A DNA stretch of 64,000 nucleotides, taken from NCBI GenBank assembly GCA_001804805.1, contig MHBH01000087.1, positions 1-64,000 of the forward strand, written 5' to 3'. The notes under the pieces are model-generated. The model saw only the letters and a program-made list of their open reading frames with translations. It searched no databases and was not told the DNA's origin. Made by a program: the position numbers and the translations under genes. This DNA comes from Lentisphaerae bacterium GWF2_49_21. Its GTDB lineage: Bacteria > Verrucomicrobiota > Lentisphaeria > Victivallales > GWF2-50-93. The first letter of the stretch is position 1. The number at the start of each line of letters is the position of its first letter. This document shows positions 173-52,329 of the stretch, piece after piece.

Positions 173-3100
173 TTATTCCTTCCGGAAAAGCTCTATGTTG
201 TCCCGGATGAATTTCATTTTGCCGATATGATAGCCGGTGTCATAGATTTTCTTATAGATGTCGCCCAGGCGTTCGAGCGGGATACCGGATTCATCCATGC
301 CGATCCTGTTATCCAAGAGGCGCAGCCGTTCGGCGCCGATAAGAGTAATGTACTGCTCATACTGGCGATCGTCCAGGCGGACCAGGTTGTCCTTCCATGT
401 GATCTTGCGGTCCGGGACCGAGGGAATAGCGTCGGCGTCCATGGTCCTGGCAAAGGTCTCGTAGACTTTCCGCATGGCCGGATCCGTCGGGATCTGGCTG
501 CTCTTGGAAATGTCAAGCAGCTGGTATATCCAGGGATTCGCGCTGTCGGGAGTGGACTTTATCGGGCGCCCGAAGAGATCGCGGCGGACCGGGAGATCCT
601 CATACATGAAGAGTTTGGACTTTGCGATATTGATAAATGACTGCTGGACCGTCTCGGCCTTCGGGTCCACCATGTAGGGCATACGGGCCCGGTTGATCGC
701 GGCCAGGGTGTTCGGCAGCACTACCGAGGATACTGTCTTGAAATAGGTCCGGAGCCAGGCGTCGTACTTCTCTTCACTGATTGCCGACAAGAGATCATTC
801 GTACCTTTCAGCATGGCCATATTCAGCGTAGCGGAGGCGATTTCCGGGAAGAAGGTCGCGGATCCTCCCATGTACTCGTACAACTTGTAATTCTCCTTCA
901 TCTCTTTCTTTGCTCGTTTGTCGCGGTTGGCTACGATCGAGGCGATTATGCCGAAGAATCCAAGGCGGTTGTAGTTTATAATCTCGTCGGTCTCCCTCCA
1001 GGCGGGGTCCTCGCCGGCCAGAAGGCGGCGGAGCCCGGAAAGGTTCAGGGAATAAGGAGCGAAGGTCGAATATTCAAGGCTGCGTTTCTTGTCGTCGTCG
1101 TCGGGTCCTCCTGAAAGCAGGCCATTTTTAAGCAGCTGGTAGCAGGCAAGGAGTATCATCTGGCCGGTGATCGCCTTCCCCAGGGATATAAGGGCTTCGC
1201 GTTTCTTTCCCTTTGTGGCGAAGAAGATTGAACGGCCCAGGGAGAATTCCGGAGACGCAAACTGGAGGCCTTCCCATGCGAGATTCGCGGGAGTCTTGAT
1301 ATAGGGGAGGACGCCGCGGGCTGCGAAGTTCGCATATCCGCCGATCCATGGGATAGATTTTATCTGCGTGAAAATATTATAGAAGATCCCGGCTGCCCTG
1401 TTGTCTTCCTGGAAGACTGCAACCTCGGCCTCTTTCTCGGCCTGGCGGACTGCGTCGAGCGGCGGCAGCTCCATGAACCTGGTAAGCGCTTCCCCTTTGA
1501 GGCCGCGGATCCGGGCCTGTTCGAAGAGGGACCGTCGGAGATTGAATTCCTTGAACGGCAGATCGCCGAAGGCCAGGAGGCGCAACATCGGCTCTGCCGG
1601 AGCGCCCAGGACTGATTCAATAAGTTTCTTTGCGCGGTCCATGACTGGGATATTCCCGGCCTCGTTGACCGGCATGTTCTCGCCGGTGAACGCCTGGACC
1701 AAGGAACGAATCGGGGCAAAGCCGCGGATCTGTTCGCCGAGGACCAGGTTGTCCAGGTTGCCGGTGAACATCTGGCGGGTGGCCCTTGCGAATCCCGTAG
1801 CTGCTCCCCTGGCACCGGCAGCGGTACCATGGAACGGATTAAGGACTGTGCGCGATTTGCCTCTTATGAGCGAATCGAGCATATCGAGCGAAGCGCCCAG
1901 GGATTGTGAAGAGTATTGGAGCGGTACATACATCGTGTTGCCGACAATGTTCGCTATCTGCGAGGACGGCGCCAGGAGATTGCCCTGGATCGTGGTCGTG
2001 AGAATGTCCGGGACCGACTTGGGTGTTAGGTCGCGGACCATCTTCATAGTGTCGATATGTTTCAGCTCGGCCTCCTTGCGGAGGGCGTCCACCTGGCGGG
2101 CGTTGGTCTCGTTGAAACTGTTGATTAGGACCTGTTCGGCATTGCGGACAGCGTCGCGGGCTGCGAAGCTCGCAATGAGCTTGTCTGTGAGGATCTTCCT
2201 CTGAGGCTCGGTCAAGTAGCGGCCCTGCTTGTTCAGCTGCTTCTCCAGGATTCCCAGGATAAGGCGCGGATCGCGGCGCTTGAGTTCGCCGAACTGGCGG
2301 AGCAATTGTCCTACGGTGGTCCCGGTCTTCGCGAGTTTCTCAACTACATTGGCCGTGTCTTCTCCCCTGGATTCCTTGCGCTGCATGAGTTCAAGGCCCG
2401 CGAGAACGGAGAAATTATCCTGGCTGTCAACCGGGATACCGTCCTGGACGGAGTCGAGCTTCTCCAGGAGCTGAATGTCGGTGAGGCCTGCGAGCTGGGA
2501 GTTGATCTGATCGTATGACTGTGGCTGATAGTACAGCTCGGGGTTGTCCTTCATGCGCTGCTGCTTGACCGGATCCGGCTCCTGGGCTGCGAGCTTCGCG
2601 GCAAACTGGCGCATCTTGGCGTATTTATCTTCGTTTGCGGGGCGGGTGGCGTATTGAGTATCCGCGTCAACTTTTCCAGTTTCCGGGCTTGATTTTTCAA
2701 TCAGATCGTTTATGTTTATGTAGGCCGTTGGGATAGGGGATGATTTGACGGTTTCTCCGCCAGCATCCGTCGCCCCTGCGGTCTTTTCTATTTCCAGGGT
2801 ATCCAGATCGTAATGACCAATTCCTCTTTTACTGTCGAGATATTCCTTGGCCTTCATTGTCACCCGGTATATTTTCCCTTCAACTTCCGCAGCGCCGACA
2901 AGGACGTGCATTTTCCGTATTGAATGTTTATCCTCGGGTTTCCTGGGATCATAACTATCAACATGGATTGAATTTTCAAGAAGCTGGGGCAATACCTGGT
3001 GAACCGCTCCTTTTATTGAAGTGTATTCCCTGAATATGGAATGCCGGAGGGAATTACCTGACAGGTTTATCATAGCCTTCAGGCTTGGATTATATTTTTC

Positions 3101-6100
3101 AATCCCGGCATATTTCTTATATGCCTCCCATGCTTGTTTGGCGCTTTCGGGCAATGCGTCTGTGACTTTGTTTATCGGGATATTTTCAGAAGAATATTGT
3201 GGCGCGGTCTCTGGAGCTGCGAGATTCGCAAGGTTGGACTTGAAGGCCTGGCCGGACTGGACGTAGTTGAATATCTCTTCCTTGGTCCAGGAGAGGTTGG
3301 GCTTGAATATCCTGGCAAAGCGTTTCATTGCGAAAAGGATCCGGTTGAATATCGCCTTGAGTCCGGCATGTATTCCTTCAGCGCCGTTGAGCCAGTCGCG
3401 GTAGGCGTTGGCCTCGGCTTCTTCGGATCCGAGAGTCTTGTCGAGGAACTTCTGCTGGGCCGGGAGTATCTCGGCAAGGTCCTTTACTCCATGCCATACC
3501 TCATGGCCGATGTCGTCCTGGCTGTACTTGCCGGTGACGAGCTGCATTGTGTTGGCCTTGGTGAGCCAGGCGGCGGGGACCATGTCGCGAGCCGGATTGA
3601 ATTCGCGGCCATAGCCTTTCTTGAAGGCTGCGCGGTCCACCTGGATTTCCTCCGTAAGCTGGACATGGAAAGTATTGCCATTCGGGAAAGTGACCTTTGC
3701 GCCTCCTGGGAATAATTCGGCTGTGGATCCCTTCGGCAGCGCATTGCGGAGCTGGGAAAGTAGTTTCATCTGCTGGTGTTTACTCTCGGGAGTATGGTCC
3801 CGGACCGTGTACTTGTCTTCGCTGCTGTCCTTCTCGTCTTCCTCTTCCTTCTCCAGGGTGACGGCGTCGTCTCCGGATTTGTTCAATCCAAGGGCCTCAT
3901 TGATCTCGTCGTAGCGTTTCATGGCCTTGTCGAGGGCGTCCTGCTTTTCAAACTTGGGCTCGGGTTCGAGATTGACCTTGTCGAGTTCGCGGCGGTATGC
4001 CTCCCCTTCAGTTTTGGCGGATTCAATATCCTTGCTGATCCCTGCGAAATGAGAAGCGATTGCGCGGGACGGGGAAGTCAATACATCCTTGTCTTCTCCA
4101 TACCAATTATCCAGGAGATTACGTGTTGAGAACGTGCGGCCTTCTCCGAGGTTGATACTAAGATAGGATCTTATTTTGTCTTTCTTGTCGCCTCCAATAT
4201 CAATTCTATTGGAAACTTCAAATCCCGCATAGGTGCCGATCTTTCCATCCTTCGCGGCGTTGGCCAGGAGATACTTGTCGGCCTGGTCGGCCTCCAGAGC
4301 CTTGTTGTCATTGGTGACAAACAGGAATTTCTCCGGTTTGTTCTTCAAGTATCTGTCATTGATCCTGGTCCATACTTCCGAGCGTGTTTTTGCATAACCA
4401 ATACTCGTATGCAGGTGTTGTTTGCGATACTGCATGTCGCTGGCCTCGGACACCTTGGAGCGCTGTTCTGATTCCAGGCGATCGATATCCTTCTCCAGTT
4501 TTATCTTTTCAATGATCATGGGGTTGCCGGTGGCGATCGCCTTGATCTCTTCGGCTGTGAGAGAAGTGGAGGCGTCGCCTTCAAGTGTGCGCTGGTCGAG
4601 CTGGGCCGTCATTACCGATTCAATTGCCTCGGCCTTGCGCTGGACGGTCTGCCAGCGGTAGACGTCGAAGGATTCCTCGGTGACATAAACGAATACATCT
4701 ACGTTCTTATGGAGATTGCCGGGGCGGAGTATGCGCCCGTTGCGCTGCTCGAATTCGGCAGGCTTCCACATTACATCTATATGGTGCAGGCCAGCGAGGC
4801 GCGTCTGCACGTTGGTGCCTTCGCCCATGCGCGGGGTATTGCCGATCAGGATCCGGACCTGGCCATTGTTCACCTTGTCGAAGAGCGCTTGTTTCTGCTC
4901 GTCGTTGTTTGCGTCGTGGATGAAGGCTATTTCCTTGGCGGGTATTCCCCTGTCCATGAGATTGCGCTTGATTGCGGCGTATACGTCGAACATGGAGCTG
5001 TCCTGGATCTCTCCTTCAACTTCCGTAAACTTCCCTTTCGGGACGCCGAGATCGCAGAATACAAGCTGGGTGCCGTTCTCGTATTCCTTGCCGTCGCGGC
5101 CTATGAATTTCCTTGTGTTCTTCCATATATCATAGACCTTCTCGGTCACTACCGCTATTTTGCCGTTGGGGTTCTCGGCATTGCCGGGCTCGATAAGGCG
5201 CTCGTCGAGGGCGGCCTTGGCGCCGTCGCTTGTGATCTTGAGCATGTTGTCGGTACGGGGATCAATGGCGCCGGTCTTAATGTCCGCTGCTCTGCCGTCA
5301 AGTTCATTGATATAGTTCTTGAGCCAGGGAGTCGCCTTGATTGGTACAACCTGTATTTTCCCCTGGTTGAGTTCGGGCCTGGGGATCTTCAATTCGGCGC
5401 TGGTCTTCACGTCGGTAAACTTATGGAACATCTGGAGAAGTTCGCCCATATTGGTGTACCTGGAGAATCTTTCCTTGGCCTCGTATCCCTTGCCGCTGGG
5501 TTTCATTTCAATTTCTGAGACGACGTCGCCGAAGGTGTTGGCCCAGTCGTCGAAGGCGAAGACGCCGCGGCGCTTGAGGGCCTCGGGTTCCATGTAGCGC
5601 TGCATGATATACATTTCCGAGATTGAATTGGAGATAGGCGTCCCGGTGGCGAAGACTACGCCGCGCTTGCCTCCATGAAGGGAGTTGACATAGCGCGTCT
5701 TCATTTCCATGTTCATGGCCTTTTGGGAAGTGGCCTGTGTCATTCCCGGAACGCGGGCGCGGTTGGTGACGATTTGCAATCCCTTGAAATTATGTGCTTC
5801 GTCAAGCAGGAGATAGTCGATCCCGAGTTCCTCGAAGGTCAATACTTTTTCCTTCTTCCCGTCGGCTGCCAGGCGTGTAAGCCTGGTCTGGAGATTCTCC
5901 TTGCGTTTTTCCAGCTGCTTGATAATCCTGTTGTCCTTCCTGGCGCCGTCGCCCTGGTCGGCGCGGGCCCGCATGACTGCGGCCTCGATGTCGTTGATCT
6001 GCTCCTGGATATAGTTGCGGGTGTATTCCTCGCTCATTCCAAACATGCCGAATGAGGAATGGGTGACAATGACCATGTCGTAATTGCCCGCTGCGATCCT

Positions 6101-9100
6101 CGCATAAAACTCCCGGCGCTTGTCTCCGGCCATCTGGTCCTTGTATCCAATGAGGATATTGGCCTGGGGGAAGGCGTCCTGGACGTCGCGGGCCCAGTCT
6201 TCGAGCTTGTGGTTGGGGACGACGATAATAGGTTTCTTTGCGATTCCCAGGCGCTTGGCCTCCATTGCGATCGCGGCCATTTCAAGGGTCTTGCCGGATC
6301 CTACGGCGTGTGCCAGGAGAAGATTCCCTCCCTGGATGCCGCGGTATATGGCGTTCTTCTGATATTCGCGGCCTGGAGCGTCGAGGCGTTCCTGCCATAT
6401 CTTCGCCAGTCCCTTTATAAAGTATCTGGAGGCGTCCCATACACGCTTGGCCATGTCGTTGAACTGGTCGTTGTAGATCTGGACCAGGCGGTCCCGGCGC
6501 TCGGGGTTCTCATAGATCCAGTTGTTGAAGTCTTCTTTAAGCTCCTGGGCTTTTATCCTGGCGCGTTCGGTGGCCTTGCGGTCTATGACGTTCTTCTTTT
6601 CTATGCTGTCGTAGCCGGATACTGTTATCTGCCTGCCGTTCATGATCGCCTCAAGAAGATCATGCGCGGGATAGTCCGGGGTGCCGTACTTCTGCGTGGC
6701 GTGTACGCCGGTGGTAACATAACTGCCGCTGCCGTCGTTGGTCACGGACCAGCCGCCGGTAAGATCGTTATGGATCACTGTCCACATTTTTGGTTGGCTG
6801 TCCGTGATCCTGGCGAGATAATCCTTGTAGGTGTCGGTCGGGATCCAGGGGGATCCTGCGCGGGGGCTGATTTGATTGTGTTTAAGAGGGACCGGCTGGA
6901 CCTTCTTCAGTTCTTCGACGTTCTTCTGATATTTGGGATTGAGCGCCGCTGCTGCTTCGGCTGCTGCGAGCTTCGCCTTGACGTAGCCGGAAAGATATTC
7001 GGAGTTCGTCTCCAGCTGATCCGTCTCGGGGTTATGGAATACTTCCTTGTTGTCGAGAAGCGCCTGGCTTACTTCGTCCTGTGTCCTGCCTGTGAGCCTG
7101 GCCATGTACTCAAGATCTATGCGGCCTTTCTCACCGAGGGACAGATAGAGGGCGTCGGATGGCGAGTCGGCCTTGGTGACTTCTTCCGGCATGGACATAA
7201 CGCGCTGGGAGAAGATCGGCATTTTATCGGCCTTGCCTGTCTCCTTGTTGTATACTTCTATGGCTTTTACAAGTGTACGGTCCGTGTCCACATTCAGATA
7301 TCGGAGATTGTCTTTTTTGCTGATCGGTCCGTGTTTCTTTACGAAGCTGTCATACGCGGCGTTGAGTTTCTTCTGCGCGATCGCCAGGATCGTATCGTCG
7401 TTGCTGTGGCGCTGGACGTTGAGGACTTCGCGTACAGCGGTGCGGACCGCGATATAACTATGGATCATCGGGACGGCGGAGGCCGGGATCTCGGTAGGTT
7501 CGAGCATACCGTCCTTCTTCTGCATGACCTTGCCGTCGGACACTATGATATTGCCTTCCTTCATTTCGGAAGGGGCGAATATCTTTTCCGGCTGGGTCTC
7601 CTGTTTCTGTGTCTTCTCTCGGGCCTCGAAGATGTTGGCGGGGAGAAGTTTCACGGCTGCCGCGATCTTGTCTTCGAGCGGTCCGCCGGTGTCTTCGACA
7701 GTCATTTCATTTCCGCCGTACATGGTACTTTCCTTGGTGAGCCTGCCCAGGATCATTTCCGGATGGTCCTCGAAGTATTTATTGATCTTGACCATCTGCG
7801 CCTGGTATTCGCTGGGCTTCTTTCTCAAGGTATGCTCGACGATCTCGGACCAGGCGGAGTTGTCCGGGGTCTGGCCGGGCATGAGTTTCTTGATATAGAT
7901 TATATCGGCTACAACTTCGGTGCCCGCTGTCTTCTTGAAGGCGATATTAGGCAGCCGGATAGCGCCTATGAACTGGCCTCCATGCTGGGTAAGGAATACG
8001 CGGAGCTTGTCGTTTACCTTGTCCATAGTTCCTTTGCTCGTCACCATTGCCATCACTCCACCGGGGCGGAGCTTGTCCAGGGCCTTGGCGAAGAAGTAAT
8101 CATGGATATTGAACTTGTATTTGTCGTATTTCGGATCCGCGAGCTGGTAGTCGCCGAATGGCACATTGCTTGTGATGGTGTCGTAGTAGTTGTCCGGTAG
8201 CGCGGTCTTCTCGAATCCCTGGATGAATGACTGGGCCTGGGGATAGAGGGCCTTCAGGATCTTGCCGGTGGTCGAGTCAATTTCGATCGCGGTCCAGTCA
8301 ACCGGAGTTGATTCCGGCTGCAAGCCTATGAAGTTGCCAATGCCTGCGGAAGTCTCCAGGGCGCGGCCTCCGTCGAATCCAAAATGTTTGAGGGCGTTCC
8401 AGATACCATTCTGGATCACGGTCTTGGAAGTATAATGGGCGTTGAGGGTGCTGCGGCGGGCCTCGTCGAATTCGTCATCTGTCATATTCTCGCGGAGCTT
8501 GAGGAAGCTCGGCCAGGCCTTTTTCCTGGTTGCTTCCTTTAAATCGCTTTCGGCCCAGCTCGGAAGGGTGCCTTCCTTCTTCTGCTTGTACCGATCGTAG
8601 GCGGTGTCAAAGTCGCGGTCGAATGACTGGACCAGGGCGCCCCATCCTGTATACTGCGCCATGAGGGATTTTTCCTCGGGAGTGGCCGGGCGGTTCTCGG
8701 TTTCGAGTGTTTTCAGGAGTTCGAGGATCTTGATATTGGTGGCGACGCTGGGGTGTATATCGTCGAGTTCGGTGGTGATCCGGAAGTTTACGCCTCGGTC
8801 TGATCCGTCTGGCTGGGCTGTTCGCCGAGATTTGGCCGGTCCTCTTCGTCCGGCAGCCTGAACACTTCCCTGGCTGTCCTCCAGGCTATGTCCGACGGCT
8901 GCGTCTCTTCCGCTTCCAGGAATACTTCCATCGTCCTGTCCGCCAGCTCGTTGGCTGTCTTGTCCAAGGTCCCGGCCTTCACCAGCTGCTTGAACATTGT
9001 CGGCCTGTGTTCCTGGATGTGTTTCTTGATTACCGGTATCAGCTGGTACTTGGGAAGGAAGCGGGAGCCGTCCGTCACTTGCTGGCCGCGGAGCGCGTCT

Positions 9101-12490: not shown

Positions 12491-12508
12491 TGGAGGATCT
12501 CCTATGTG

Positions 12509-13660: not shown

Positions 13661-13672
13661 GGTGTGATCTCC

Positions 13673-38095: not shown

Positions 38096-38124
38096 TTGAC
38101 AAGTAAACTCCATGCACCTATCTT
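38096..38124 (+). promoter_or_regulatory. Rightward early promoter
   Basis: A perfect -35 TTGACA (38096-38101) and TATCTT (38119-38124) are separated by 17 bp. The first early gene starts at 38148. It faces the leftward promoter, so a repressor bound between 38052 and 38096 could block both. Confidence 0.65.
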
Positions 38125-38147
38125 GAATTATAAAACAGGAGATTGGC

Positions 38148-38330: not shown

Positions 38331-38333
38331 ACT

Positions 38334-38970: not shown

Positions 38971-38985
38971 AAAGGCGGTGCAGTC

Positions 38986-39495: not shown

Positions 39496-39509
39496 AAGGA
39501 GATTTATCT

Positions 39510-40147: not shown

Positions 40148-40172
40148 TCTTTTTACATAAGCAATTTCCATA

Positions 40173-41543: not shown

Positions 41544-43228
41544 TCACCAACGAAAATCAAATCAAGGACAGCGCCGACATACTCTCGATCGTGTCCCGCC
41601 GGGTCCCTATAAAGCAGCGCGGCGCCCAGTACAAGGGCCTATGTCCTTTCCACCAGGAGAAGACACCGAGTTTTACGGTCACGCCTGCTAAAAAGATGTT
41701 CCATTGCTTCGGCTGCAACATCGGAGGCGACGCGATCAAATTCGTGATGAACTACGAGAACAAGACTTATCCCGAGGCCCTGGAGATCGTCGCAGCTGAA
41801 AGCAGCGTCATAGTCGAATACGACAAAAGCGCGGTGCCCGAGCCGGGAATACCCCGCCAGAATCTTTATGAGGCCTGCGCCATAGCCACAAGCATATATG
41901 CTCTCGAATTGCAGGATCCTAAAAATAAGAAGGCAATTGATTATCTTTATTCCCGCGGCTTCACGGATCCGCTGATCGAGAAGTTCCAGCTCGGTTATTC
42001 AAGAGGTTATTGTCTTGCGGAGCGTGTTGGCAACAAGGAGGCCATGCTGGAGGCCGGTATCCTGGGCAAGCCGGATCCGGATTCAAAGAACCAGGATCTC
42101 TACGATCCTCTTGCCGGGCGCGTGATTATCCCGCTGTTAGATTCCCTGGGGAGGATAGTCGGTTTCACCGGTCGCAAACTTCCAGGCGGCAGCGACGAGA
42201 CGGCAAAATACAAGAACACCAGGGAGACAAAGATTTTCCAGAAGGGACAAATCCTGTACGGCTATAAATTCGCCCAGGAAATGCTCCGCACTGCAAGAAA
42301 GGAGGTCAAACGGGATCTGTATATACTTGAAGGTCAATTGAAGGCTGCCGCGGCCCTGGTCGCCGGTTTCGCCGGGGTGGCTCCGGGCGGGACGGCGTTC
42401 ACGGCCCGGCAGGCCGCTCTCGTTGACTATCTCAATCCCGAGACCGTCTACATTGTCCCGGATCCGGACCCAGCCGGGATCCATTCCGCCATCAAGACAG
42501 CCTGCGAGCTTCGCAACCTGGAGCTGAACGTCAAGATAGCCTCCCTGGTCATTCCGGACCAGTGCGAATTGCAGGGGAAGATTGACACCGACGATCTCAT
42601 GGCCGCGGGCCTCCCGGTCCAGTTCGAGCATACGGACCTGGTCGAATGGCTCTTGGTCACCCTCTGCTCGAAGCCTTTCAATTCCCCTGACAGCGTCCAC
42701 AAGATTACCGAGTCAATCCTGCCGGTGATATTCGCCCATCCTAACCCGCTTATCCGTGACGCTGAAATAAATCTCCTGTCGAATCTCTCCGGGACGTCCT
42801 CTATTACCCTGGCGAAGTACAAGCCCGGACCGGCGCCGGCAGCTGCAACATCTTCCGCACAGACGGCGCAGATCATAACGTCCCTTACCCCTGGATGTTA
42901 TCTCTGCGCCGCTCTTCTCCAGCAGCCGATCGACAATCTCATATCGAAGAACACCGGGGACCTATGGTATCAGATGTGGATCGACTGGACGCAGATCCCG
43001 CTCCCGCTGCTCAAATGGCTGCGGAGGATCGCCATGGTACATAAACATGCGGCCTACTACAAGATCCCGGTCGTGTCCGCCATCGAGAAATGCTGTCCGG
43101 CTGATTCGCCCCAGCTCAACTACTGGCTGGCCCTGCCTGAAATCGAAGTCGCCTCCCTGGACCTTATCAACAAGCTCCAGCTGGAAGCTATCAAATATTC
43201 AAAGGAAAACAAGGAGAAACCATCATGA
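41540..43228 (+). CDS. dnaG: DNA primase DnaG-like, 562 aa
   Basis: The zinc-binding domain is complete: C35, H38, C56 and C59 in CPFHQEKTPSFTVTP and FHCFGC. The RNA polymerase/Toprim core has the acidic motif ILEGQLKAAAALVAG near residue 264 and VPDPDPAGIHSA near 308. The C-terminal 150 residues are helical and replace the helicase-binding domain of cellular DnaG. It makes primers for phage replication with the DnaB encoded just upstream (4-bp overlap). One of the dispersed TGCGA-N3-TCGCA sites lies in it at 42503. Confidence 0.92.
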   Translation: MITNENQIKDSADILSIVSRRVPIKQRGAQYKGLCPFHQEKTPSFTVTPAKKMFHCFGCNIGGDAIKFVMNYENKTYPEALEIVAAESSVIVEYDKSAVPEPGIPRQNLYEACAIATSIYALELQDPKNKKAIDYLYSRGFTDPLIEKFQLGYSRGYCLAERVGNKEAMLEAGILGKPDPDSKNQDLYDPLAGRVIIPLLDSLGRIVGFTGRKLPGGSDETAKYKNTRETKIFQKGQILYGYKFAQEMLRTARKEVKRDLYILEGQLKAAAALVAGFAGVAPGGTAFTARQAALVDYLNPETVYIVPDPDPAGIHSAIKTACELRNLELNVKIASLVIPDQCELQGKIDTDDLMAAGLPVQFEHTDLVEWLLVTLCSKPFNSPDSVHKITESILPVIFAHPNPLIRDAEINLLSNLSGTSSITLAKYKPGPAPAAATSSAQTAQIITSLTPGCYLCAALLQQPIDNLISKNTGDLWYQMWIDWTQIPLPLLKWLRRIAMVHKHAAYYKIPVVSAIEKCCPADSPQLNYWLALPEIEVASLDLINKLQLEAIKYSKENKEKPS

Positions 43229-43458
43229 AGATTCTTACGGTTGAAGTTGACGCCGTCGCGGTGAACTGCCGTGTTAGCAATGCCGAGATCATCGAGACGA
43301 CAAAATTCGACATGCCGGAGAAGGCGCTTATTTCACTCGTCGCCGAAACTGCGGTCCTGAACGTCCGCGAGTCGATCGCCGCCAGGACCAACGTGCCCTA
43401 CACGGCGATAGCGGTCAAGAAGCTGAGTATTAAAAACATTCATATAAGGGAGGAATGA
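43225..43458 (+). CDS. Small protein of the replication operon, 77 aa
   Basis: Starts 4 bp inside the primase stop and ends in a 4-bp overlap (ATGA) with a possible start of the next gene. Compact alpha/beta (ILTVEVDAVAVNCRVSNAEI, then ISLVAETAVLNVRESIAA). No known family. Its tight coupling to the primase suggests a replication or recombination accessory role. Confidence 0.6.
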   Translation: MKILTVEVDAVAVNCRVSNAEIIETTKFDMPEKALISLVAETAVLNVRESIAARTNVPYTAIAVKKLSIKNIHIREE

Positions 43459-43460
43459 CT

Positions 43461-43769
43461 ATGAGGCCAAGCACAAGAGACGCGCTGTTGGCGCTGCTTC
43501 GCATGGACAACGAAGTAAAACCCGAACAGATCGCCGCGGTCCAGGCGGTTGCTGAAAACATGCCTATTCTCATTTCCGAGGGTGACGCCGCGAAAATCAT
43601 TGGCAAGCCGCGGACAACTCTCAACTCCTGGCGTCTTAATAAAAAAGGCAGGATCCCTTTTCCCTTTACTGTTAGGCCCTGTCCTATCTCCAAAGGGGTC
43701 CTCTACAACGAAATTGAAGTACGCGCCTGGGTCCGTAATTTCTTCTTCGAAGGGAAGGTGAAGAAATGA
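43461..43769 (+). CDS. HTH protein, excisionase-like, 102 aa
   Basis: Two in-frame ATGs lie at 43455 and 43461. The second has GGAGG at 7 bp, the first has it too close, so 43461 is preferred. Residues about 40-60 (LISEGDAAKIIGKPRTTLNS) form a MerR/AlpA-type helix-turn-helix, and the C-terminal part (YNEIEVRAWVRNFF) fits the HTH_17-like end in which the wing specifies DNA. Such proteins serve as excisionases or early activators. Here it lies far from the integrase, so a regulator is also possible. Confidence 0.6.
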   Translation: MRPSTRDALLALLRMDNEVKPEQIAAVQAVAENMPILISEGDAAKIIGKPRTTLNSWRLNKKGRIPFPFTVRPCPISKGVLYNEIEVRAWVRNFFFEGKVKK

Positions 43770-44125
43770 AAAAACCCCTCTTCTCCAAGAAGGATATTGT
43801 CTACATTGCCGGACCGGTCCGCGGGATCCCGAAGAAGAACGCTCCGAAGTTTCTGGCCGTCGAAAAGTTTCTCGTCGAGACATACGGCTGCAAGGTCCTG
43901 AATCCGGTCCGGATTACCGATCCCCATGTCGCCCGCTGCCACAAGGGCAGGAAGGGAAAGGCTCTCCAGCGTGAATACGCCAGGCACGACATTGACCTGG
44001 TTTTCAAGTCCACGGCCATCTTCATGATGTCCGGATGGGATCCCTCGGTCGGCGCCACTGCCGAGTATTACCTATCCCGCTGGCTCATGCTCAAAATCGT
44101 ACACGAATATCAATTGGTTCCATAA
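43766..44125 (+). CDS. DUF4406 (nucleoside deoxyribosyltransferase-like) protein, 119 aa
   Basis: VYIAGPVRGIPKKNAPKFLA near the start, CKVLNPVRITDP, REYARHDIDLVFKSTAIFMM and SGWDPSVGATAEYYLS match the DUF4406 pattern (YIAGPxxGxP, NP, RxDI, GWxxSxGAxxE). The family belongs to the nucleoside 2-deoxyribosyltransferase-like fold, with a probable role in phage nucleotide salvage or modification. The catalytic Glu is present (ATAEYY). It overlaps the previous gene by 4 bp. Confidence 0.78.
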   Translation: MKKPLFSKKDIVYIAGPVRGIPKKNAPKFLAVEKFLVETYGCKVLNPVRITDPHVARCHKGRKGKALQREYARHDIDLVFKSTAIFMMSGWDPSVGATAEYYLSRWLMLKIVHEYQLVP

Positions 44126-44188
44126 AAAATAGCGTTTCCGGACTGCGTAGCAGGACGGGAACGCGCACAAAAAATATTTGGAGGATAT

Positions 44189-44845
44189 ATGAAAATCGAA
44201 ATCAAGAAATGGACAAATGACGAAGTTCTTTTTTCTCTCGACATTGAAAACAACTCAATCAAGCTGACCGTTGAGGCCGCAGTCAAAGCCGGGGTAAGTC
44301 TCTCGTATGCGAACCTCTACTCGGCGAACCTCGTGAGGGCGAACCTCGTGAGGGCGAACCTCGTGAGGGCGAACCTCTACTCGGCGAACCTCTACTCGGC
44401 GAACCTCTACTCGGCGAACCTCTACTCGGCGAACCTCGTGAGGGCGAACCTCTACTCGGCGAACCTCGACTCGGCGAACCTCGACTCGGCGAACCTCGTG
44501 AGGGCGAACCTCGTGAGGGCGAACCTCGACTCGGCGAACCTCTACTCGGCGAACCTCGACTCGGCGAACCTGAATGGAGCGAAGTACGGGGATTTTACTA
44601 TCAAAAAACTACCAATTCAAATCTCAAATATTGGCTATTATGTCCTTATTTTTGAGACTCATATGAAGATTGGTTGTGAACTTCATACGCATGATGAATG
44701 GAAAAATTTTACAAATCGCGAAATCGCCGAAATGGACGGCAAAAAAGCGCTGGCCTTCTGGAAGCAATACAAATCCCTTCTTGTGGGTTTCTGCAAGACG
44801 ATGGAGGAGAAGAAAATCAAAAAAAAGGAGTCAAATAATGAGTGA
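44189..44845 (+). CDS. Pentapeptide-repeat protein, 218 aa
   Basis: Residues about 38-130 contain 17 units of the form xxANL, where xx is only YS, VR or DS. Each A[N]L unit fits the pentapeptide-repeat rule A(D/N)LXX, which folds as a right-handed beta-helix. The N-terminus and the C-terminal 85 residues ([20 protein letters not shown]) are different and match the C-terminal part of phage/bacterial pentapeptide proteins. Some members (MfpA, Qnr) mimic DNA and protect gyrase; whether this one does is unknown. The unit tract is perfect at DNA level and probably variable in length. Confidence 0.85.
44318..44572 (+). repeat. 17-unit 15-bp minisatellite inside the pentapeptide gene
   Basis: Seventeen consecutive 15-bp units share GCGAACCT(C/G) and differ only in the first six bases: TACTCG (7 units), GTGAGG (6) and GACTCG (4). 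Order: Y V V V Y Y Y Y V Y D D V V D Y D. Perfect units mean recent expansion by slippage or recombination, and length changes keep the reading frame. Confidence 0.92.
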
Positions 44846-45107
44846 AAAACTATTCCATGTCTGCTACAAGCGGAAAGAAGTCCTGGAGATTTCCAATCCT
44901 CTCTACGTTATAGGCGTCTGCCATGATTGCGGCGCAAAGAGAAACAAGCGCCTGGAGCTGGAGAAGCTCGGTTTCAATATCCCGCATTTGCAGAAGGACT
45001 GGAAAAAACTATGGACCGTCAAACCGGCGCCCGAAAAGGTCCAGGTCCACAAGAAGAAGCCTTCCAAAAAAACTGTCCATAAAAAGAAAAGGAGGGCCTC
45101 CAAATGA
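44838..45107 (+). CDS. Small basic protein with Cys motif, 89 aa
   Basis: Start chosen at 44838, which overlaps the pentapeptide gene stop by 8 bp and has AAAAGGAG upstream; a longer frame only shadows the previous gene. The N-terminal half has HVCYK and CHDCGAK (one CxxC pair plus another Cys), the C-terminus is very Lys/Arg-rich (KKKPSKKTVHKKKRRASK). A nucleic-acid-binding protein is likely. It overlaps the methyltransferase start by 4 bp. Confidence 0.6.
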   Translation: MSEKLFHVCYKRKEVLEISNPLYVIGVCHDCGAKRNKRLELEKLGFNIPHLQKDWKKLWTVKPAPEKVQVHKKKPSKKTVHKKKRRASK

Positions 45108-45604
45108 AGCGAAGCAAGTCAAGGACGACGCGGCGCGACAAGTTCAAGGCCTGTTTCTCTTCCAGGTCGAATCTCTGGACGACGCCTCCGGATCTCTTCA
45201 AGAAGCTGGATGCGAAGTACCATTTCAATCTAGATCCCTGCTGCACCCATGAGACGGCGCTTTGCAAGGACCATTTCACGCCAGCCGAAGACGGCCTCCA
45301 GCAATCCTGGGCATTCAAGTGTGTCTTCTGTAATCCTCCGTATTCCTGGGAAGGTGGGCTATGGGTTGCCAAAGCATACTTTGAGGCCAAAGAGAATGGG
45401 GCTTTGGTTATCTGTCTTCTTCCTGTCCGCACAGATACACGCTGGTTCCATGAGTTTGTCTTAAAAGCGGAAGAGACGGAGTTCATAAAGGGCCGTCTCA
45501 AATTCGGAAATTCAAAAAATAGCGCTCCGTTCCCCAGCATAATCGTTCGTTTCGGCTGCGACTGTGGCTCCTGCTGCGAGCTTCGCGGGAAAGGGGAATT
45601 ATGA
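45104..45604 (+). CDS. DNA N6-adenine methyltransferase (phage Dam family), 166 aa
   Basis: Matches the phage N-6-adenine methyltransferase family: WTTPPDLFKKLDAKYHFNLD (start of the SAM-binding region), CCTHETALCKDHFTP, and the catalytic motif CNPPYSW (motif IV, NPPY) at about residues 74-80. The length, about 165 residues, is normal for the family. It lacks its own restriction partner. Together with the methyltransferase in the giant protein it gives the phage two routes of adenine methylation: one made early in the cell, one probably brought in the particle. Confidence 0.88.
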   Translation: MKRSKSRTTRRDKFKACFSSRSNLWTTPPDLFKKLDAKYHFNLDPCCTHETALCKDHFTPAEDGLQQSWAFKCVFCNPPYSWEGGLWVAKAYFEAKENGALVICLLPVRTDTRWFHEFVLKAEETEFIKGRLKFGNSKNSAPFPSIIVRFGCDCGSCCELRGKGEL

Positions 45605-45843
45605 GCGAACCTAAGATCATTACCAAGCCCAGCAATCCGGTCTATCGAAAGGAATGGTCCCGGATATTCAAAAAGAAGCGCAAGGATGGCCGCAGGGCCA
45701 ACGGTCCCGGCAAGCGCCCCACTGCCCAGGAAAACGCGAAGTTCGCGGCCTGGAATAAGGATCACCCTCCAAAACTAGACGCCGTCTCCCTCCATGCCGA
45801 GCGCACCGATCATTGCAAGGGCGCCAGGGGGAACATCGAATGA
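45601..45843 (+). CDS. Small basic protein, 80 aa
   Basis: Basic, Pro-containing protein (PVYRKEWSRIFKKKRKDGRR, then ANGPGKRPTAQENAKF). It overlaps the methyltransferase stop by 4 bp and the next start by 4 bp. No known family. Composition suggests DNA or RNA binding. Confidence 0.5.
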   Translation: MSEPKIITKPSNPVYRKEWSRIFKKKRKDGRRANGPGKRPTAQENAKFAAWNKDHPPKLDAVSLHAERTDHCKGARGNIE

Positions 45844-46433
45844 AAACCAAAGTCCTCTTCCTCGGCTTCGGGGATCCCTCGACCTGCTTCGACGAATACA
45901 AGGATCATGCCATCTGGACCATGAACGACTTCTATGTGTTCTTTCCCGAACTGGTCCAGCTCGGTCCGGATCGCGTCTTCCAGATACACAAGAAGACACG
46001 CGACGATTATACCGAAGCGGAGTTTGCAAAAGACTGTCATAATGGACGCTGGCTCATTATGCCTGGCATTGGAAACTGGCGGGCCGTCTACGAGAAGTCC
46101 GGAGCGCAGATCGTGACGCGGCGTCGTCTCGGCTTCACAAACGAGCTTATCCTTCCCATGGATGAATACATCAAGACATTCGGCGAACGTTTCTTCTGCG
46201 CTACATTCTCCTATATGTTCGCCTTATCCATCCAGGAGGCGCAGTTCAAGGAAATCACGCTCAAAGGCCTCCGTCTTGACTGGTCCCTGGAATACGCCCT
46301 GCAAATGCCGGGTATGCTCCGCAACATCGACGCAGCCCGCCAGGCCGGTATCACAGTCAACGCTCCAAACGAGCCGCTCTGGCGCGAACAAATTAAACCC
46401 ATGACCGAGGATTGGAAGGGGATATATGGCTAA
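45840..46433 (+). CDS. Phage protein of unknown function, 197 aa
   Basis: Start at 45840 overlaps the previous stop (ATGA); a longer frame runs into that gene. The N-terminus KTKVLFLGFGDPS has a Rossmann-like beta strand and Gly turn, followed by WTMNDFYVFFPELVQLGPDR and VFQIHKK, a pattern seen in several uncharacterised phage proteins (W-x-hydrophobic-N followed by P-D-R and a His). The middle has FFCATFSYMFALSIQ, a possible hydrophobic helix. Function not known. Confidence 0.6.
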   Translation: MKTKVLFLGFGDPSTCFDEYKDHAIWTMNDFYVFFPELVQLGPDRVFQIHKKTRDDYTEAEFAKDCHNGRWLIMPGIGNWRAVYEKSGAQIVTRRRLGFTNELILPMDEYIKTFGERFFCATFSYMFALSIQEAQFKEITLKGLRLDWSLEYALQMPGMLRNIDAARQAGITVNAPNEPLWREQIKPMTEDWKGIYG

Positions 46434-46624
46434 CGATTATAATTTCAGTTGTCCAAGTTGCGGCCAGTTCTGCAAATGCGGCAATTATAAAAAGCAAGGG
46501 GGGGAAACACTGCTGGAATTGCCAGTACGTTGATCTCCATGTGAAAAAAGAGCCATGCCTTTCGTGTCGCTTGGGCTTGGTTAGGACTAAAAAATTGATG
46601 TGGAAGAAAAAAAGAGGCCGCTAA
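46426..46624 (+). pseudogene. Zinc-ribbon gene broken by a one-base shift in a G7 run
   Basis: Starting at ATG 46426 (with GGAAGGGG upstream) the frame encodes NFSCPSCGQFCKCGNYKKQ and then, after the G7 run at 46498-46504, ends as ETLLELPVR. The other frame (after the run) continues with GGKHCWNCQYVDLHVKKEPC and ends at 46624 in TAA, joined to the next start by TAATG. With six G instead of seven the two parts join into one double zinc-ribbon protein of 65 residues. This may be a true mutation, phase variation, a programmed shift or a read error. Confidence 0.6.
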
Positions 46625-46812
46625 TGTCAAAATATGAATCTGAATACTCCGGCGGGACCATCCTTAATCAATGTCCGCATTGCGGACAGTTCTGCAAGCG
46701 TCCGAAATATTACAGGCCGAAGTTCCGCGGCTTAGTTTTCATAGGATCATACGCGAGATCCTATTGTAAGCGCTGCCGGACGTGGGTGTTATTAGGTGTC
46801 ATATATTGTTAA
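46624..46812 (+). CDS. Small zinc-ribbon protein, 62 aa
   Basis: Start at 46624, sharing one base with the preceding stop (TAATG). It holds two Cys pairs, CPHCGQFCKRPK and YCKRCRTWVLL, typical of a small zinc ribbon. It resembles the N-terminal part of the preceding broken gene (CPSCGQFCKCG), so the two are probably relatives. Confidence 0.6.
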   Translation: MSKYESEYSGGTILNQCPHCGQFCKRPKYYRPKFRGLVFIGSYARSYCKRCRTWVLLGVIYC

Positions 46813-46832
46813 AAAACAGGGAGGAAAATAGG

Positions 46833-47075
46833 ATGATAGTTCAAAAGACGGACATGACTGAAATTCCGCTTTGCTGTTGCGACTGCAAGGCTATGTGTAA
46901 AGTTCCAGTAGAGTGCCATTATTACAATCCGCAAGGAGATGGAGAAATCAAACATATACGTCCCAAAACCTGCCCCCTCCTGAATCTTCCATCACGGGCG
47001 GAGGCGAGGGAGATACTTGTAGGGCTAATGACTGACCTCAAAAACAACCATGCGTTTATGTCTCTGATGAAATAG
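46833..47075 (+). CDS. Small Cys-rich protein, 80 aa
   Basis: Start at 46833 after AGGGAGGAAAATAGG. The N-terminal half contains several Cys residues (IPLCCCDCKAMCKVPVECHY), the C-terminus is helical (AREILVGLMTDLKNNHAFMS). Probably zinc-binding. Unknown family. Confidence 0.58.
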   Translation: MIVQKTDMTEIPLCCCDCKAMCKVPVECHYYNPQGDGEIKHIRPKTCPLLNLPSRAEAREILVGLMTDLKNNHAFMSLMK

Positions 47076-47112
47076 ACGCAACACTAACCAAGCTCGGATT
47101 CAAGGAGGCAAG

Positions 47113-47259
47113 ATGAAATTCAAATGTCCGCATTGCGGTCAGGTGTTCAAGCGTGATTTGCGGAAGCGTGAATATCGCAGGAATTACAGCAAAGTTAAAA
47201 AGGCATATTTGTCAGCGTGTAAGGACAGCGATCATTATTGGTGCAAGGAGGCAAGATGA
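47113..47259 (+). CDS. 48-aa zinc-ribbon protein
   Basis: A short gene with AAGGAGGCAAG before ATG. It starts KFKCPHCGQVFKRDLRKRE and ends CKDSDHYWCKEAR: one CxxC pair near the start and two Cys near the end. The stop overlaps the next start by 4 bp. Third member of the local run of small zinc-ribbon proteins. Confidence 0.6.
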   Translation: MKFKCPHCGQVFKRDLRKREYRRNYSKVKKAYLSACKDSDHYWCKEAR

Positions 47260-47561
47260 AACTACGCCGATTAAAACGAATCCGCATTGGCGAAGTGATA
47301 TTCACTGTCAAATGGGATAGCAAGGACGATGGCGGATATTTCGATTACGGCGAGAAGACGATCTCCATCGGAATAAAGGGGAATACTATGCGCCAGTTTG
47401 CAGTAATAGTCCATGAGATAAAGGAAATTCTCAACATCAACCAGTACGTAAGATACACAAGGCCAGACACGTTAAAGGATTACGAGTTCCATTATGGACA
47501 CCGAGAACATTCGGCAATGTGTAACGATTTGGCAGGAATATTAAATGAGTTTATAAAGTGA
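47256..47561 (+). CDS. Small metallopeptidase-like phage protein, 101 aa
   Basis: Start at 47256, overlapping the preceding stop by 4 bp. Short beta strands (IGEVIFTVKWDSKDDGGYFD) are followed by a helix with VIVHEIKEILNI and a later HYGHREHSAMCNDLAGIL. The HExxE plus distal His is like the HExx[HE] pattern of many small phage proteins related to IrrE-type peptidases. A true protease is not proven, as HExxH is incomplete. It ends just before the convergent integrase gene. Confidence 0.55.
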   Translation: MKLRRLKRIRIGEVIFTVKWDSKDDGGYFDYGEKTISIGIKGNTMRQFAVIVHEIKEILNINQYVRYTRPDTLKDYEFHYGHREHSAMCNDLAGILNEFIK

Positions 47562-47573
47562 AGAAAATGAGAT

Positions 47574-48737
47574 CTACTTCTTGAGTCCCGGTAATTTCTC
47601 CGCGACCCTCTTCCCGGCGGCCAGAGAATGATTATAATGTTCCGTCATGACCGGTGATCCGTGTCCGACTGTCTTCTGCACGTCCGACAATGCCGCTCCG
47701 CCGTCCAGCGCCATCGTTACATGGCTGTGTCTGAGACTATGGAAGCCGATCAGCTTGACAACCTTCTCCCTTATTTCTCCCGGCTGCTTCTTCCTGGTAG
47801 TCTTTATTCCTGCGAGCTTGCAGATATCTTCAAATTCCTCGGTAATAAATCTCTGGCGACTGTTATATTCCCAGTCCACCTGGATCCATACAGGCCCGGC
47901 TTTCTGTCCGTCCCACAACTTTCGTAGTGGCGCGGACCAGGAAGAGTCAAACGGATAGGATATGTCGCGGCCTTTCTTCCTTCCCTTGTTCGGGACATAG
48001 CGGATCATGCTGTTGTCGAAGTCCAATTCGTCCCAGCTCAAGGTACATACGTCTCCAAGCCTCATGCCGGTATGATATGCCAGGCTGATAGCGATCTGCC
48101 AGAATCCAGGATAACGCGACTTGTATTTCTTCGAGTGCTTGAAGATCTCCCGGATCTGCTCAATGGAGAATTCTTGTTTCCGTATGCTGCGTATTTCCGC
48201 TCTCGGGACGGCCTCCCATACGTTCATCTTCAATCCCAGCGGGATCCGGACCGTCGCAAAGATACTATGCAGGCTTGACAGATAGTTGTTCCTGGTAACT
48301 CCGCTCTTCTTTCCAATGGATTCCATGAACGATGCCGCTGTCCGCTCGGTGATATCGTCGAGATATTTCATTTCGGGCTGGTTGGACCGCAGCCAGTCGA
48401 TGAATCTTGTAATATGCGTCTTCTTGCTGTTGAGGGTCCGGTCCGTGATCGATCGGATCGTCGGCTGCTGCGTGTAGTATTTCCATAAGTCGCCTATTGA
48501 ATATCGTGTACCGATCGTTTCGGTATTTGCTCCGGCCTTGTCGAAGATGGTTCTCAACTTGTCCTGGCGTTCGTGTCCCTGTTGCACCTCATGTACTTCG
48601 GAGGCGAGGCCCATGGCCGTATTCTTGTCGGTGGTCCCGGAATTCCTTTCAATGCGCTGCCGTCGTCCTTCCGCGTCCCGCACGTAGTAGACGATATACC
48701 AGTTCAAATGATTCTTCTTTTGTTTCAACCAGGCCAT
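47574..48737 (-). CDS. Tyrosine-type integrase of the prophage, 387 aa
   Basis: I chose the ATG at 48737 (MAWLKQKKN) because AAAGGAG lies 6 bp upstream. The N-terminal 100 residues include an arm-binding-like beta region (WYIVYYVRDAEGRRQRIERN). The catalytic set is complete: R226 (YHTGMRLGD), H333-x-x-R336 (FHSLRHSH), H359 (GHGSP) and nucleophile Y368 (TEHYNHS). It lies beside the intact tRNA-Ser copy and in the same direction, as expected for a tRNA-targeting phage integrase. Confidence 0.93.
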   Translation of the reverse strand: MAWLKQKKNHLNWYIVYYVRDAEGRRQRIERNSGTTDKNTAMGLASEVHEVQQGHERQDKLRTIFDKAGANTETIGTRYSIGDLWKYYTQQPTIRSITDRTLNSKKTHITRFIDWLRSNQPEMKYLDDITERTAASFMESIGKKSGVTRNNYLSSLHSIFATVRIPLGLKMNVWEAVPRAEIRSIRKQEFSIEQIREIFKHSKKYKSRYPGFWQIAISLAYHTGMRLGDVCTLSWDELDFDNSMIRYVPNKGRKKGRDISYPFDSSWSAPLRKLWDGQKAGPVWIQVDWEYNSRQRFITEEFEDICKLAGIKTTRKKQPGEIREKVVKLIGFHSLRHSHVTMALDGGAALSDVQKTVGHGSPVMTEHYNHSLAAGKRVAEKLPGLKK

Positions 48738-48787
48738 GATCTCCTTTACTTCGGCTAGTATAGCTCGTATGGCTGATAATATCAATA

Positions 48788-51432: not shown

Positions 51433-52329
51433 CTACTTTGGTGACAGGACATAATTTAGCAGGAGCATGTCGGGCTCATAGGACTGTTTCGCCTTCCTGA
51501 GGCCGGGAAGTCCGATGTCCTGTTCGCGGTTGATGAACTTGCATCTTCCAAGAAGGGACTTCGCGGTCTCCCAGTTTATCGCCTGTGCCGCACCCTTGAA
51601 ATCCTTGTCGTACTTCTCGAAATGCACTACCGCCGCATCGCTGCTCTGGAAGCTGTAAACGGAGAAGGCTACTATTTTGCCGCTGACAAGGATGCAGACG
51701 CCTTCGATATCAAGACTCTTGAAATTAGCAAAAGCCTCCTGGATCGCCTCCTTTTCCTGCCCGAGCGTGAAAGGATCGCTGGCGGTGCTTTCGCGCCACC
51801 TTTCAGAAAGCGCAAAACATTCCTGGAGATGAGACTCCTCCATGGGAAAACAGGTATAGCCGGGATTGTTCCTGGCGAACTGAGAGACCAGATTCTTCTT
51901 TTTTGCGAGTTTCGCACCCCTCAGCAGATAAAGTTTCTCGGTGGAATATATGTAGTCGGCGAAATCCTCGTCGTGTTCGGTGTCGAAGATGTCGTTCACC
52001 TTGGGATTCTGTTTCACATACTCCTCCGGCACCTGGATGACAGATGCATCCTTGTCGTTGGGGAAAGTACATGAGAGGAGGTTCGCAAGTTCCTCTGGAG
52101 TATAAACATCTCCGAGCGGCATGAGGAGTGTCTTGTCCAGGCCTGAATGGATCAGTATTGAGTTCCTGAAATTCATCCACCTGATGTCATAGGTCTTCCT
52201 CCATATGAAAAGGTTTGTGAACACGTATTCGCATGGAAGAAGAGTGAACCTGAGGAAGACATCCTGGAGATATGCTTTATCAGAAATGTCCACCAGCTTG
52301 AAATCATTTATGGAAATGAGAGGATTCAT
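51433..52329 (-). CDS. DUF2156-like (phosphatidylglycerol lysyltransferase C-terminal-like) protein, 298 aa
   Basis: N-terminal and C-terminal GNAT-like halves, with TYDIRWMNFRNSILIHSG, then VNDIFDTEHDEDFADYIYST, then LYLLRGAKLAKKKNLVSQF, then ALSERWRES and the closing FINREQDIGLPGLRKAKQSY. These patterns are typical of DUF2156 (LPG_synthase_C-like) proteins, which are acyltransferase folds in lipid or peptide modification. Here there is no membrane domain, so it is the soluble type. A perfect TGCGA-N3-TCGCA site lies in it at 51904. Confidence 0.78.
   Translation of the reverse strand: MNPLISINDFKLVDISDKAYLQDVFLRFTLLPCEYVFTNLFIWRKTYDIRWMNFRNSILIHSGLDKTLLMPLGDVYTPEELANLLSCTFPNDKDASVIQVPEEYVKQNPKVNDIFDTEHDEDFADYIYSTEKLYLLRGAKLAKKKNLVSQFARNNPGYTCFPMEESHLQECFALSERWRESTASDPFTLGQEKEAIQEAFANFKSLDIEGVCILVSGKIVAFSVYSFQSSDAAVVHFEKYDKDFKGAAQAINWETAKSLLGRCKFINREQDIGLPGLRKAKQSYEPDMLLLNYVLSPK

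What the first reader, a model, noticed from the sequence alone, without database searches (positions are those of the whole stretch)
1322..51916. Dispersed 13-bp interrupted palindrome TGCGA-N3-TCGCA
Perfect copies start at 1322, 2162, 3218, 6092, 10757, 15479, 15854, 16937, 17405, 19240, 20250, 31543 and 42503 in the prophage, and at 51904 in a host gene. At least eight more have one mismatch (about 2588, 6965, 17296, 20562, 28104, 30067, 33134, 45575). Ten fixed bases predict about one site per megabase, so 14 in 64 kb is far above chance. All are inside genes; in the leftward genes I checked, the site falls in one codon phase (T|GCG|ANN|NTC|GCA, giving Ala-x-hydrophobic-Ala), so DNA-level selection or codon habit must be separated. 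It recalls stoperators of mycobacteriophage L5 or HIP1-type palindromes, but the host copy suggests a genome-wide host motif shared by the phage. None was seen in the second element.
Basis: seen in the sequence. Interest (0 to 1): 0.85.

Follow-up and report, generated by a model that had tools for sequence, protein, structure and literature searches.

The report
Iterated 13-bp palindrome in Lentisphaerae
A 13-letter mirror-image DNA word is repeated about a thousand times in the genome of an uncultured Lentisphaerae-type bacterium, is largely kept at the same places in related species, and has also been taken up by the virus living in this genome, which suggests a genome-wide docking site for a host protein not yet identified.

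Summary
The window holds 15 perfect TGCGANNNTCGCA (0.1 expected), the genome 1041 against 10 for the reversed control. It is a host-lineage motif. A softer form, YGCGRNNNYCGCR, has at least 500 copies at 6x control or more in 16 of 197 genomes of the class and in none of 256 sampled from the rest of the phylum. Lineages have dialects. Perfect sites on one contig are kept in 21 of 27 site-by-genome comparisons, with a 13-bp footprint and a free central base. Four sister-prophage stretches in motif-poor hosts have none. Strong positives G025, G082 and G083 lack three DNA-methyltransferase families. Best reading: a highly iterated palindrome outside Cyanobacteria, the genome-wide site of an unidentified dimeric host protein. 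The protein and its job are unknown; uptake-sequence-like or methylation-linked origins remain open.

The parts
1322..1334 (.). perfect site TGCGAAGTTCGCA
   Evidence: inside ORF 173-12490(-), phase 2
2162..2174 (.). perfect site TGCGAAGCTCGCA
   Evidence: ORF 173-12490(-)
3218..3230 (.). perfect site TGCGAGATTCGCA
   Evidence: ORF 173-12490(-)
6092..6104 (.). perfect site TGCGATCCTCGCA
   Evidence: ORF 173-12490(-)
10757..10769 (.). perfect site TGCGACATTCGCA
   Evidence: ORF 173-12490(-)
   Evidence: ORF 14723-17746(-)
15479..15491 (.). perfect site TGCGAGTTTCGCA
   Evidence: ORF 14723-17746(-)
15854..15866 (.). perfect site TGCGATAGTCGCA
   Evidence: ORF 14723-17746(-)
16937..16949 (.). perfect site TGCGACATTCGCA
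   Evidence: ORF 14723-17746(-)
17405..17417 (.). perfect site TGCGAGGTTCGCA
   Evidence: ORF 14723-17746(-)
19240..19252 (.). perfect site TGCGAGATTCGCA (codon phase 1)
   Evidence: ORF 17757-19355(-)
20250..20262 (.). perfect site TGCGACAATCGCA
   Evidence: ORF 19569-20453(-)
31543..31555 (.). perfect site TGCGAATTTCGCA
   Evidence: ORF 30955-33021(-)
42503..42515 (.). perfect site TGCGAGCTTCGCA (codon phase 0)
   Evidence: primase gene 41540-43228(+)
51904..51916 (.). perfect site TGCGAGTTTCGCA in host DNA
   Evidence: LPG_synthase_C gene 51433-52329(-)
1277..1289 (.). soft (YGCGRNNNYCGCR) site, one of 13 that are not perfect; the others start at 2588, 17297, 18696, 20564, 28104, 30070, 33135, 34237, 37603, 45575, 45735, 53205
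1..48785 (.). prophage carrying the sites; its left end is not seen (the window starts at base 1 of the contig); integrase 47574-48785(-) next to tRNA-Ser 48880-48971(-)
   Evidence: extent inferred
33274..35184 (-). terminase large subunit used to find sister prophages

Best explanation
It is a highly iterated gapped palindrome, consensus (Y)TGCGAA-N-TTCGCA(R), of the host lineage (the Lentisphaerae-type family that includes GWF2_50_93, and scattered relatives). It works as the genome-wide recognition site of a host-encoded protein that binds DNA as a symmetric dimer. Sites are kept in place, probably by purifying selection, and accumulate slowly in DNA that stays in the lineage, including this prophage. 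Shown: enrichment, exact spacing, an origin beyond codon usage, dialects, retention with a 13-bp footprint (one contig), absence from sister prophages in motif-poor hosts. Inferred: that a dimeric protein reads it, and that the benefit is chromosomal (nucleoid organisation, repair, or marking of own DNA) rather than gene regulation.
For: 1041 vs 10 control in the genome; 65 at gap 3 vs 0-2 at each other gap 0-8 in 378 kb; synonymous shuffles mean 1.5, largest 5 of 200, against 59. All ten fixed bases kept in 7 of 11, 6 of 8 and 8 of 8 comparisons with G001, G002, G003; flanking windows 12, 7 and 9% (binomial 7e-5, 2e-6, 6e-9). Solitary half-sites are kept much like their flanks, 35/94, 11/34 and 7/31, halves in palindromes 46/54. 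Positions 0-12 kept 25-27 of 27 except the central base, 22 of 27, as in the flanks: a 6-1-6 dimer-like site. Dialects not set by GC: G000 (GC 0.50) has 1041 perfect and 1943 soft sites, G019 (sample GC 0.49) 14 and 1982, with C in 96% at position 0 in its sample of 19. ORFs shared with G001 have 467 soft sites/Mb, other ORFs 80/Mb at equal GC, p 0.001. Prophage 14 perfect sites in 47.6 kb; sister-prophage contig stretches 0 in 60, 37.5, 20 and 5 kb.
Against: No binding protein was identified. Position-specific retention could also come from biased repair. The distribution is patchy within families (f13: g56 14-40x, g55 about 1x), odd for an essential nucleoid protein. The 27 comparisons come from at most 13 perfect sites on one 91-kb contig and are not independent; soft-only sites are kept exactly in just 3 of 9, 0 of 3 and 1 of 2 (as soft sites 7 of 9, 0 of 3, 1 of 2), and the one in G004 not at all. 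Isolated flank columns also reach 27 of 27. Inner one-off variants are asymmetric on the coding strand, 29 vs 6, which an RNA-level cause would also predict.
Confidence: 0.55

Rival explanations
1. Uptake-signal-like sequence: a competence receptor prefers this word, and transformation enriches it by molecular drive; prophages acquire it from related lysogens.
For: Lineage dialects, higher density in shared genes than in other ORFs, presence in the prophage. Almost all Pasteurellaceae prophages in one survey carry the host's uptake word, with Hin-USS saturating near 750 per Mb (PMC6776037, passages read).
Against: Both half-sites are conserved together and single half-sites are not; the uptake words DUS, Hin-USS and Apl-USS are not palindromes (recalled).
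Confidence: 0.2
2. HIP1-type ratchet: a DNA methyltransferase reads a core of the word, and methylation-directed repair creates and keeps the full palindrome (Elhai's model for cyanobacteria).
For: Closest known precedent; alternate HIPs there go with a matching methyltransferase (PMC4390886: abstract, section 3.4 part 1 of 2 and passages read). HsdM-type PF02384 proteins occur in 17 of 18 positive genomes tested. One-off C2>T is also above control, 4 vs 0.2, as deamination of a methylated C would give.
Against: PF01555, PF00145 and PF02086 all have no match in strongly positive G025, G082 and G083. PF02384 is also in 5 of 6 negatives and not found in positive G078; 20 of the listed PF02384 matches, from 11 genomes, showed no single orthologous group, but the rest were not compared. 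One-off forms pile up mainly at A4>G (35) and T0>C (8) in the host.
Confidence: 0.15
3. RNA-level cause: the word forms a short hairpin in transcripts that is selected for.
For: TGCGG-N3-TCGCA (G-U pair in the sense strand) outnumbers TGCGA-N3-CCGCA (A-C) 29 to 6 in host ORFs.
Against: These are amino-acid-changing positions in the main codon phase; at the outer positions the counts are 6 vs 5 overall and 3 vs 3 in the main phase (small). 6 of 65 host sites are not in a called ORF. Dialects and retention would need hairpins at over a thousand places.
Confidence: 0.04
4. Phage stoperators or operators: the sites bind a repressor encoded by the prophage.
For: Dispersed copies in a prophage, 12 of 14 of them in its first 20.3 kb; similar palindromes occur as close pairs in many viral contigs.
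Against: 1041 copies host-wide, all 8 family genomes enriched, and sister prophages without perfect sites.
Confidence: 0.02
5. Codon or amino-acid habit (Ala-x-hydrophobic-Ala) with no cause at the nucleotide level.
For: Codon phase 2 dominates: 47 of 59 host and 13 of 15 window sites.
Against: Synonymous shuffles give 1.5 against 59 and 0.27 against 15; all three phases and non-ORF sites occur; no other gap is enriched.
Confidence: 0.01

Closest known systems
HIP1 and alternate HIPs of Cyanobacteria (GCGATCGC and others)
   Same: A palindrome iterated very many times per genome, with lineage variants and low-frequency exceptions; function still debated (PMC4390886).
   Different: Here a 13-bp palindrome with a free centre and softer specificity, in another phylum; three methyltransferase families absent from strong positives; prophage content and positional retention measured here.
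DNA uptake sequences (DUS, USS) of Neisseriaceae and Pasteurellaceae
   Same: Genome-wide word with lineage dialects, richer in core genes, accumulated by resident phages (PMC6776037, passages).
   Different: Those words are asymmetric (recalled); competence not tested here.
matS sites of MatP (13-bp GTGACRNYGTCAC; recalled)
   Same: Odd 5-3-5 palindrome of 13 bp read by a dimer (recalled).
   Different: matS is confined to the terminus domain with few copies (recalled); here sites are spread over both large contigs of G083, and an apparent ori-ter gradient did not replicate on contig C1.
Stoperators of mycobacteriophage L5 (recalled)
   Same: Many dispersed copies of a 13-bp word in a temperate phage.
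   Different: Here the word belongs to the host; related phages lack it.

Membership tests
Highly iterated palindromes (HIP) | a palindromic oligomer far over-represented genome-wide | tested here: met
Highly iterated palindromes (HIP) | HIP1 sequence GCGATCGC, ungapped | tested here: not met
   motif is TGCGA-N3-TCGCA; with gap 0 it occurs 0 times in 378 kb. So it is not HIP1.
Highly iterated palindromes (HIP) | a methyltransferase matching the motif (Elhai) | tested here: inconclusive
   no match to PF01555, PF00145, PF02086 in G025, G082, G083; PF02384 present in positives and negatives; other families not searched, genomes incomplete, specificity not measurable
DNA uptake sequences | lineage dialects and enrichment in shared genes | tested here: met
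   (one 91-kb contig)
DNA uptake sequences | non-palindromic, oriented word (recalled) | tested here: not met
   both halves conserved together, single halves not
DNA uptake sequences | biased uptake by a competence machinery | not tested
   needs experiment; competence genes not searched
L5-type stoperators | phage-specific sites bound by the phage repressor | tested here: not met
   host-wide, missing in sister prophages
matS | confined to the terminus region (recalled) | tested here: not met
   in G083
matS | MatP homologue | not tested
   no search run

The most novel reading that the evidence does not exclude
A previously undescribed self-DNA marking or chromosome-organising system in the Lentisphaerae class: a dimeric protein reads a 13-bp palindrome in lineage dialects, and prophages must adopt the host's dialect to persist.
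Probability: 0.3. Interest if true: 0.9.

Novelty: new variant of a known kind. Interest (0 to 1): 0.74.

Why it matters
Why some bacteria carry very many copies of one palindrome is an open question for HIP1. This looks like a separate case in another phylum, with positive and negative genera within one family, dialects, and related prophages in positive and negative hosts. That makes the cause findable by gene-presence comparison, and the effect on phages testable.

Tried and rejected
RNA hairpin: not supported but not cleanly excluded (29 vs 6 at inner, amino-acid-changing positions; 6 vs 5 at outer positions, 3 vs 3 in the main phase). Ori-ter bias: rho -0.38, p 0.017 in 40 windows of G083, with origins placed by eye from GC skew; 20 independent windows of contig C1 gave +0.17, p 0.47, so I rejected it; on C1 the two arms differ, 3.67 vs 2.38 per 20 kb, p 0.02, a comparison chosen after seeing the data. 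A second conservation set (G082 to G083) had one perfect aligned site, kept, and one further soft site, lost; too few to use; a third (other f1 loci to G000) had no site. The terminase search in viral contigs found no relative. Megablast of 12.2 kb of the prophage against phage records found nothing. Of the named hits outside this lineage, the 22 genomes counted have 2-39 perfect sites, so none is enriched genome-wide like the host; several of those shown are local pairs or arrays.

Left out by rule: sites not aligned over all 13 bases (of 13 perfect sites, 11, 8 and 8 were alignable in G001, G002 and G003) and alignments under 250 bp (150 bp). Loci (G025, G004 and others) were fetched because they hold close site pairs, so their densities are biased upward; I use only their base preferences. 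In the G025 loci the commonest one-off forms are G3>T and A4>T (19 each), unlike the host. ORFs are my own greedy calls of at least 100 aa, not curated genes.

Full report
Observation. The window contains 15 perfect TGCGANNNTCGCA, one more than reported (14765), against 0.10 expected, and 28 with up to one mismatch against 2.76. The window is contig C87:1-64000 of a 5.9-Mb, 91-contig genome that carries 1041 perfect copies, against 10 for the pattern read backwards.

Codons or DNA? In 378 kb of host DNA (20 stretches) the palindrome occurs 65 times at gap 3 and 0-2 times at each other gap from 0 to 8. Shuffling synonymous codons within each ORF, which keeps the protein and codon usage, leaves a mean of 1.5 (largest 5 of 200) where 59 are seen in host ORFs, and 0.27 (largest 3) where 15 are seen in the window; 6 of 65 host sites are not wholly inside a called ORF. 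Phase 2 is favoured (47 of 59) probably because it costs the protein least (Ala-x-hydrophobic-Ala); that is inference.

What the word is. Flank and centre counts give (Y)TGCGAA-N-TTCGCA(R) in the host. The commonest one-off forms there are A4>G (35) and T0>C (8), so the word behaves more like a protein-binding matrix than a strict enzyme site; in the G025 loci G3>T and A4>T lead instead (19 each). On the coding strand the inner one-off forms are asymmetric (29 vs 6), at amino-acid-changing positions; the outer ones are not (6 vs 5). I read this as protein constraint, but an RNA-level contribution is not excluded.

Where it occurs. In the class of the host (197 genomes held) the perfect form and the softer YGCGRNNNYCGCR were counted with reversed controls. 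Sixteen of 197 have at least 500 soft sites at 6x control or more: all 8 held of family f1, all 4 of f6, G078, and G082-G084; G011 has 112 at 12x. By my reading of the table others are weaker (2-6x), and many lie between 0.3x and 2x. In a phylum-wide draw of 387 genomes, 131 of them from this class, none of the 256 outside the class reaches 4x (highest 59 vs 16, read by eye). Equal sizes and counts match relatives to named MAGs: G001 to Lentisphaerae bacterium GWF2_50_93 (G001 is of the host's genus), G025 to Kiritimatiellota CSMAG_162, G004 to an uncultured Lentisphaerae MAG; the names are inferred from that match. NCBI places GWF2_50_93 in Lentisphaerota.

Dialects. G000 (GC 0.50) has 1041 perfect among 1943 soft sites; G019 (GC 0.49 in 22 kb) has 14 among 1982. 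In samples, position 0 is T in 86% of G000 sites but C in 96% in G019 (19 sites) and 82% in G012 (44 sites); G082 prefers T before the core. GC content does not explain the contrast between G000 and G019. In family f21, genus g74, the reversed palindrome is the one in excess (1054-1510 vs 205-395); my sample there was too small to study it (18.6 kb of short contigs).

Maintenance. One 91-kb contig of G000 was compared with homologous DNA of G001, G002 and G003 (found, fetched; 75-80% identity where aligned). All ten fixed bases are kept in 7 of 11, 6 of 8 and 8 of 8 alignable perfect sites; windows at codon-matched offsets are fully kept in 12, 7 and 9%. Solitary half-sites are kept much like their flanks (35/94, 11/34, 7/31), halves within palindromes in 46 of 54. 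Across the 27 comparisons the 13 positions are kept in 25-27, except the central base, 22 of 27, no better than flanks; single flank columns (one 3 bases before the site, one far off) also reach 27. Sites ascertained in G001 give 8 of 11. For soft-only sites exact retention is lower: 3 of 9, 0 of 3 and 1 of 2 in G001, G002 and G003, and 0 of 1 in G004; kept as soft sites 7 of 9, 0 of 3, 1 of 2 and 0 of 1. On the same contig, ORFs shared with the G001 stretch have 20 soft sites in 42.9 kb and other ORFs 3 in 37.3 kb at equal GC (p 0.001). Of the ten site-bearing shared genes scanned, eight match ordinary metabolic, RNA-modifying or repeat families and two match none.

The prophage. It has 14 perfect and 26 soft sites in 47.56 kb (547 soft/Mb), as dense as the shared host genes. 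Twelve of the 14 perfect sites lie in its first 20.3 kb; I have no explanation. The terminase finds matches in 7 of the other 196 class genomes, three of them weak. The four strong ones were fetched: G013 matches 16 of 28 window proteins tried, G116 7, G085 4, G122 1; their stretches of 60, 37.5, 20 and 5 kb, flanks included, have no perfect site and 0, 1, 2 and 0 soft sites. Their hosts are motif-poor (0.4-1.9x). So the word follows the host, not the phage family. Whether the phage gained it by long residence or needs it cannot be told.

Cause. Elhai linked HIPs to methyltransferases (PMC4390886: outline with abstract, section 3.4 part 1 of 2, and passages). Here G025, G082 and G083 have no match to PF01555, PF00145 or PF02086. 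PF02384 proteins are present in 22 of 24 genomes, 17 of 18 positives and 5 of 6 negatives; among the 20 stretches that I compared, from 11 genomes, no group spans the positives. Other methyltransferase families were not searched, and these genomes are incomplete. The uptake-sequence model is a serious rival, because Pasteurellaceae prophages are reported to accumulate the host's uptake word (PMC6776037, passages); it is weakened by the palindromic symmetry here. An ori-ter gradient in G083 seen in one sample did not replicate.

Literature. No paper in the held library contains any of the five motif strings searched. Searches for HIP1, for Lentisphaerae with palindrome and motif, for over-represented or iterated palindromes, for HIP1 with cyanophage, and for uptake-sequence dialects showed, in their listings, no report of such a motif outside Cyanobacteria; two searches listed only 20 of 1,489 and 12 of 7,456 papers. 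Delaye and Moya 2011, on HIP1 among prokaryotes, was seen only as a reference. Most subscription papers and bioRxiv preprints are not covered.

Verdict. A genuine, host-wide iterated palindrome with dialects, positionally conserved where tested, most likely the site of an unknown dimeric host protein; new variant of a known kind.

Noticed in passing
173-12490: A 4105-aa prophage protein is DarB-like (helicase plus methyltransferase-type antirestriction; phrog_10089, E=0) and holds 5 perfect sites.
   Followed up: partly
45104-45604: Phage Dam-type adenine methyltransferase (PF05869).
   Followed up: no
53982-64000: Second element beside tRNA-Glu with its own integrase, an AAA protein and a primase-like protein; no palindrome of either form at gap 3.
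   Followed up: partly
1-20262: Twelve of the 14 prophage sites cluster in its first 20.3 kb.
   Followed up: no
G108, G109, G110 (family f21, genus g74): The reversed palindrome RCGCYNNNRGCGY is in 3.6-5.2-fold excess over YGCGRNNNYCGCR: perhaps a second, different iterated palindrome in the same class.
   Followed up: partly
L165; L201: Viral contig L165 has nine TGCGACNGTCGCA in 9.6 kb; L201 (GC 0.33) has ten soft sites in 10 kb with none at six control gaps, a possible second phage of a motif-rich host.
   Followed up: no
L143, L170, L176, L204, L212; G043 and G050: Close pairs or short arrays of TGCGANNNTCGCA in viral contigs of GC 0.55-0.69, and arrays about 41 bp apart in two Tannerellaceae MAGs, look like repressor operators.
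   Followed up: no
G083 contigs C1 and C2: Contigs of 2.73 and 2.40 Mb each show their own pair of GC-skew switches in 20-kb samples, with single exceptions, as two chromosomes would.
   Followed up: no
G000:C60:3201-4007 and relatives: A D12-class adenine methyltransferase with strong matches in G000, G001, G002, G004 and G005 of the host family, weaker in G003.
   Followed up: no
L007 1374-1446, 3044-3157, 7937-7996, 9679-9738: Short dispersed repeats that match many places in genomes of the family.
   Followed up: no
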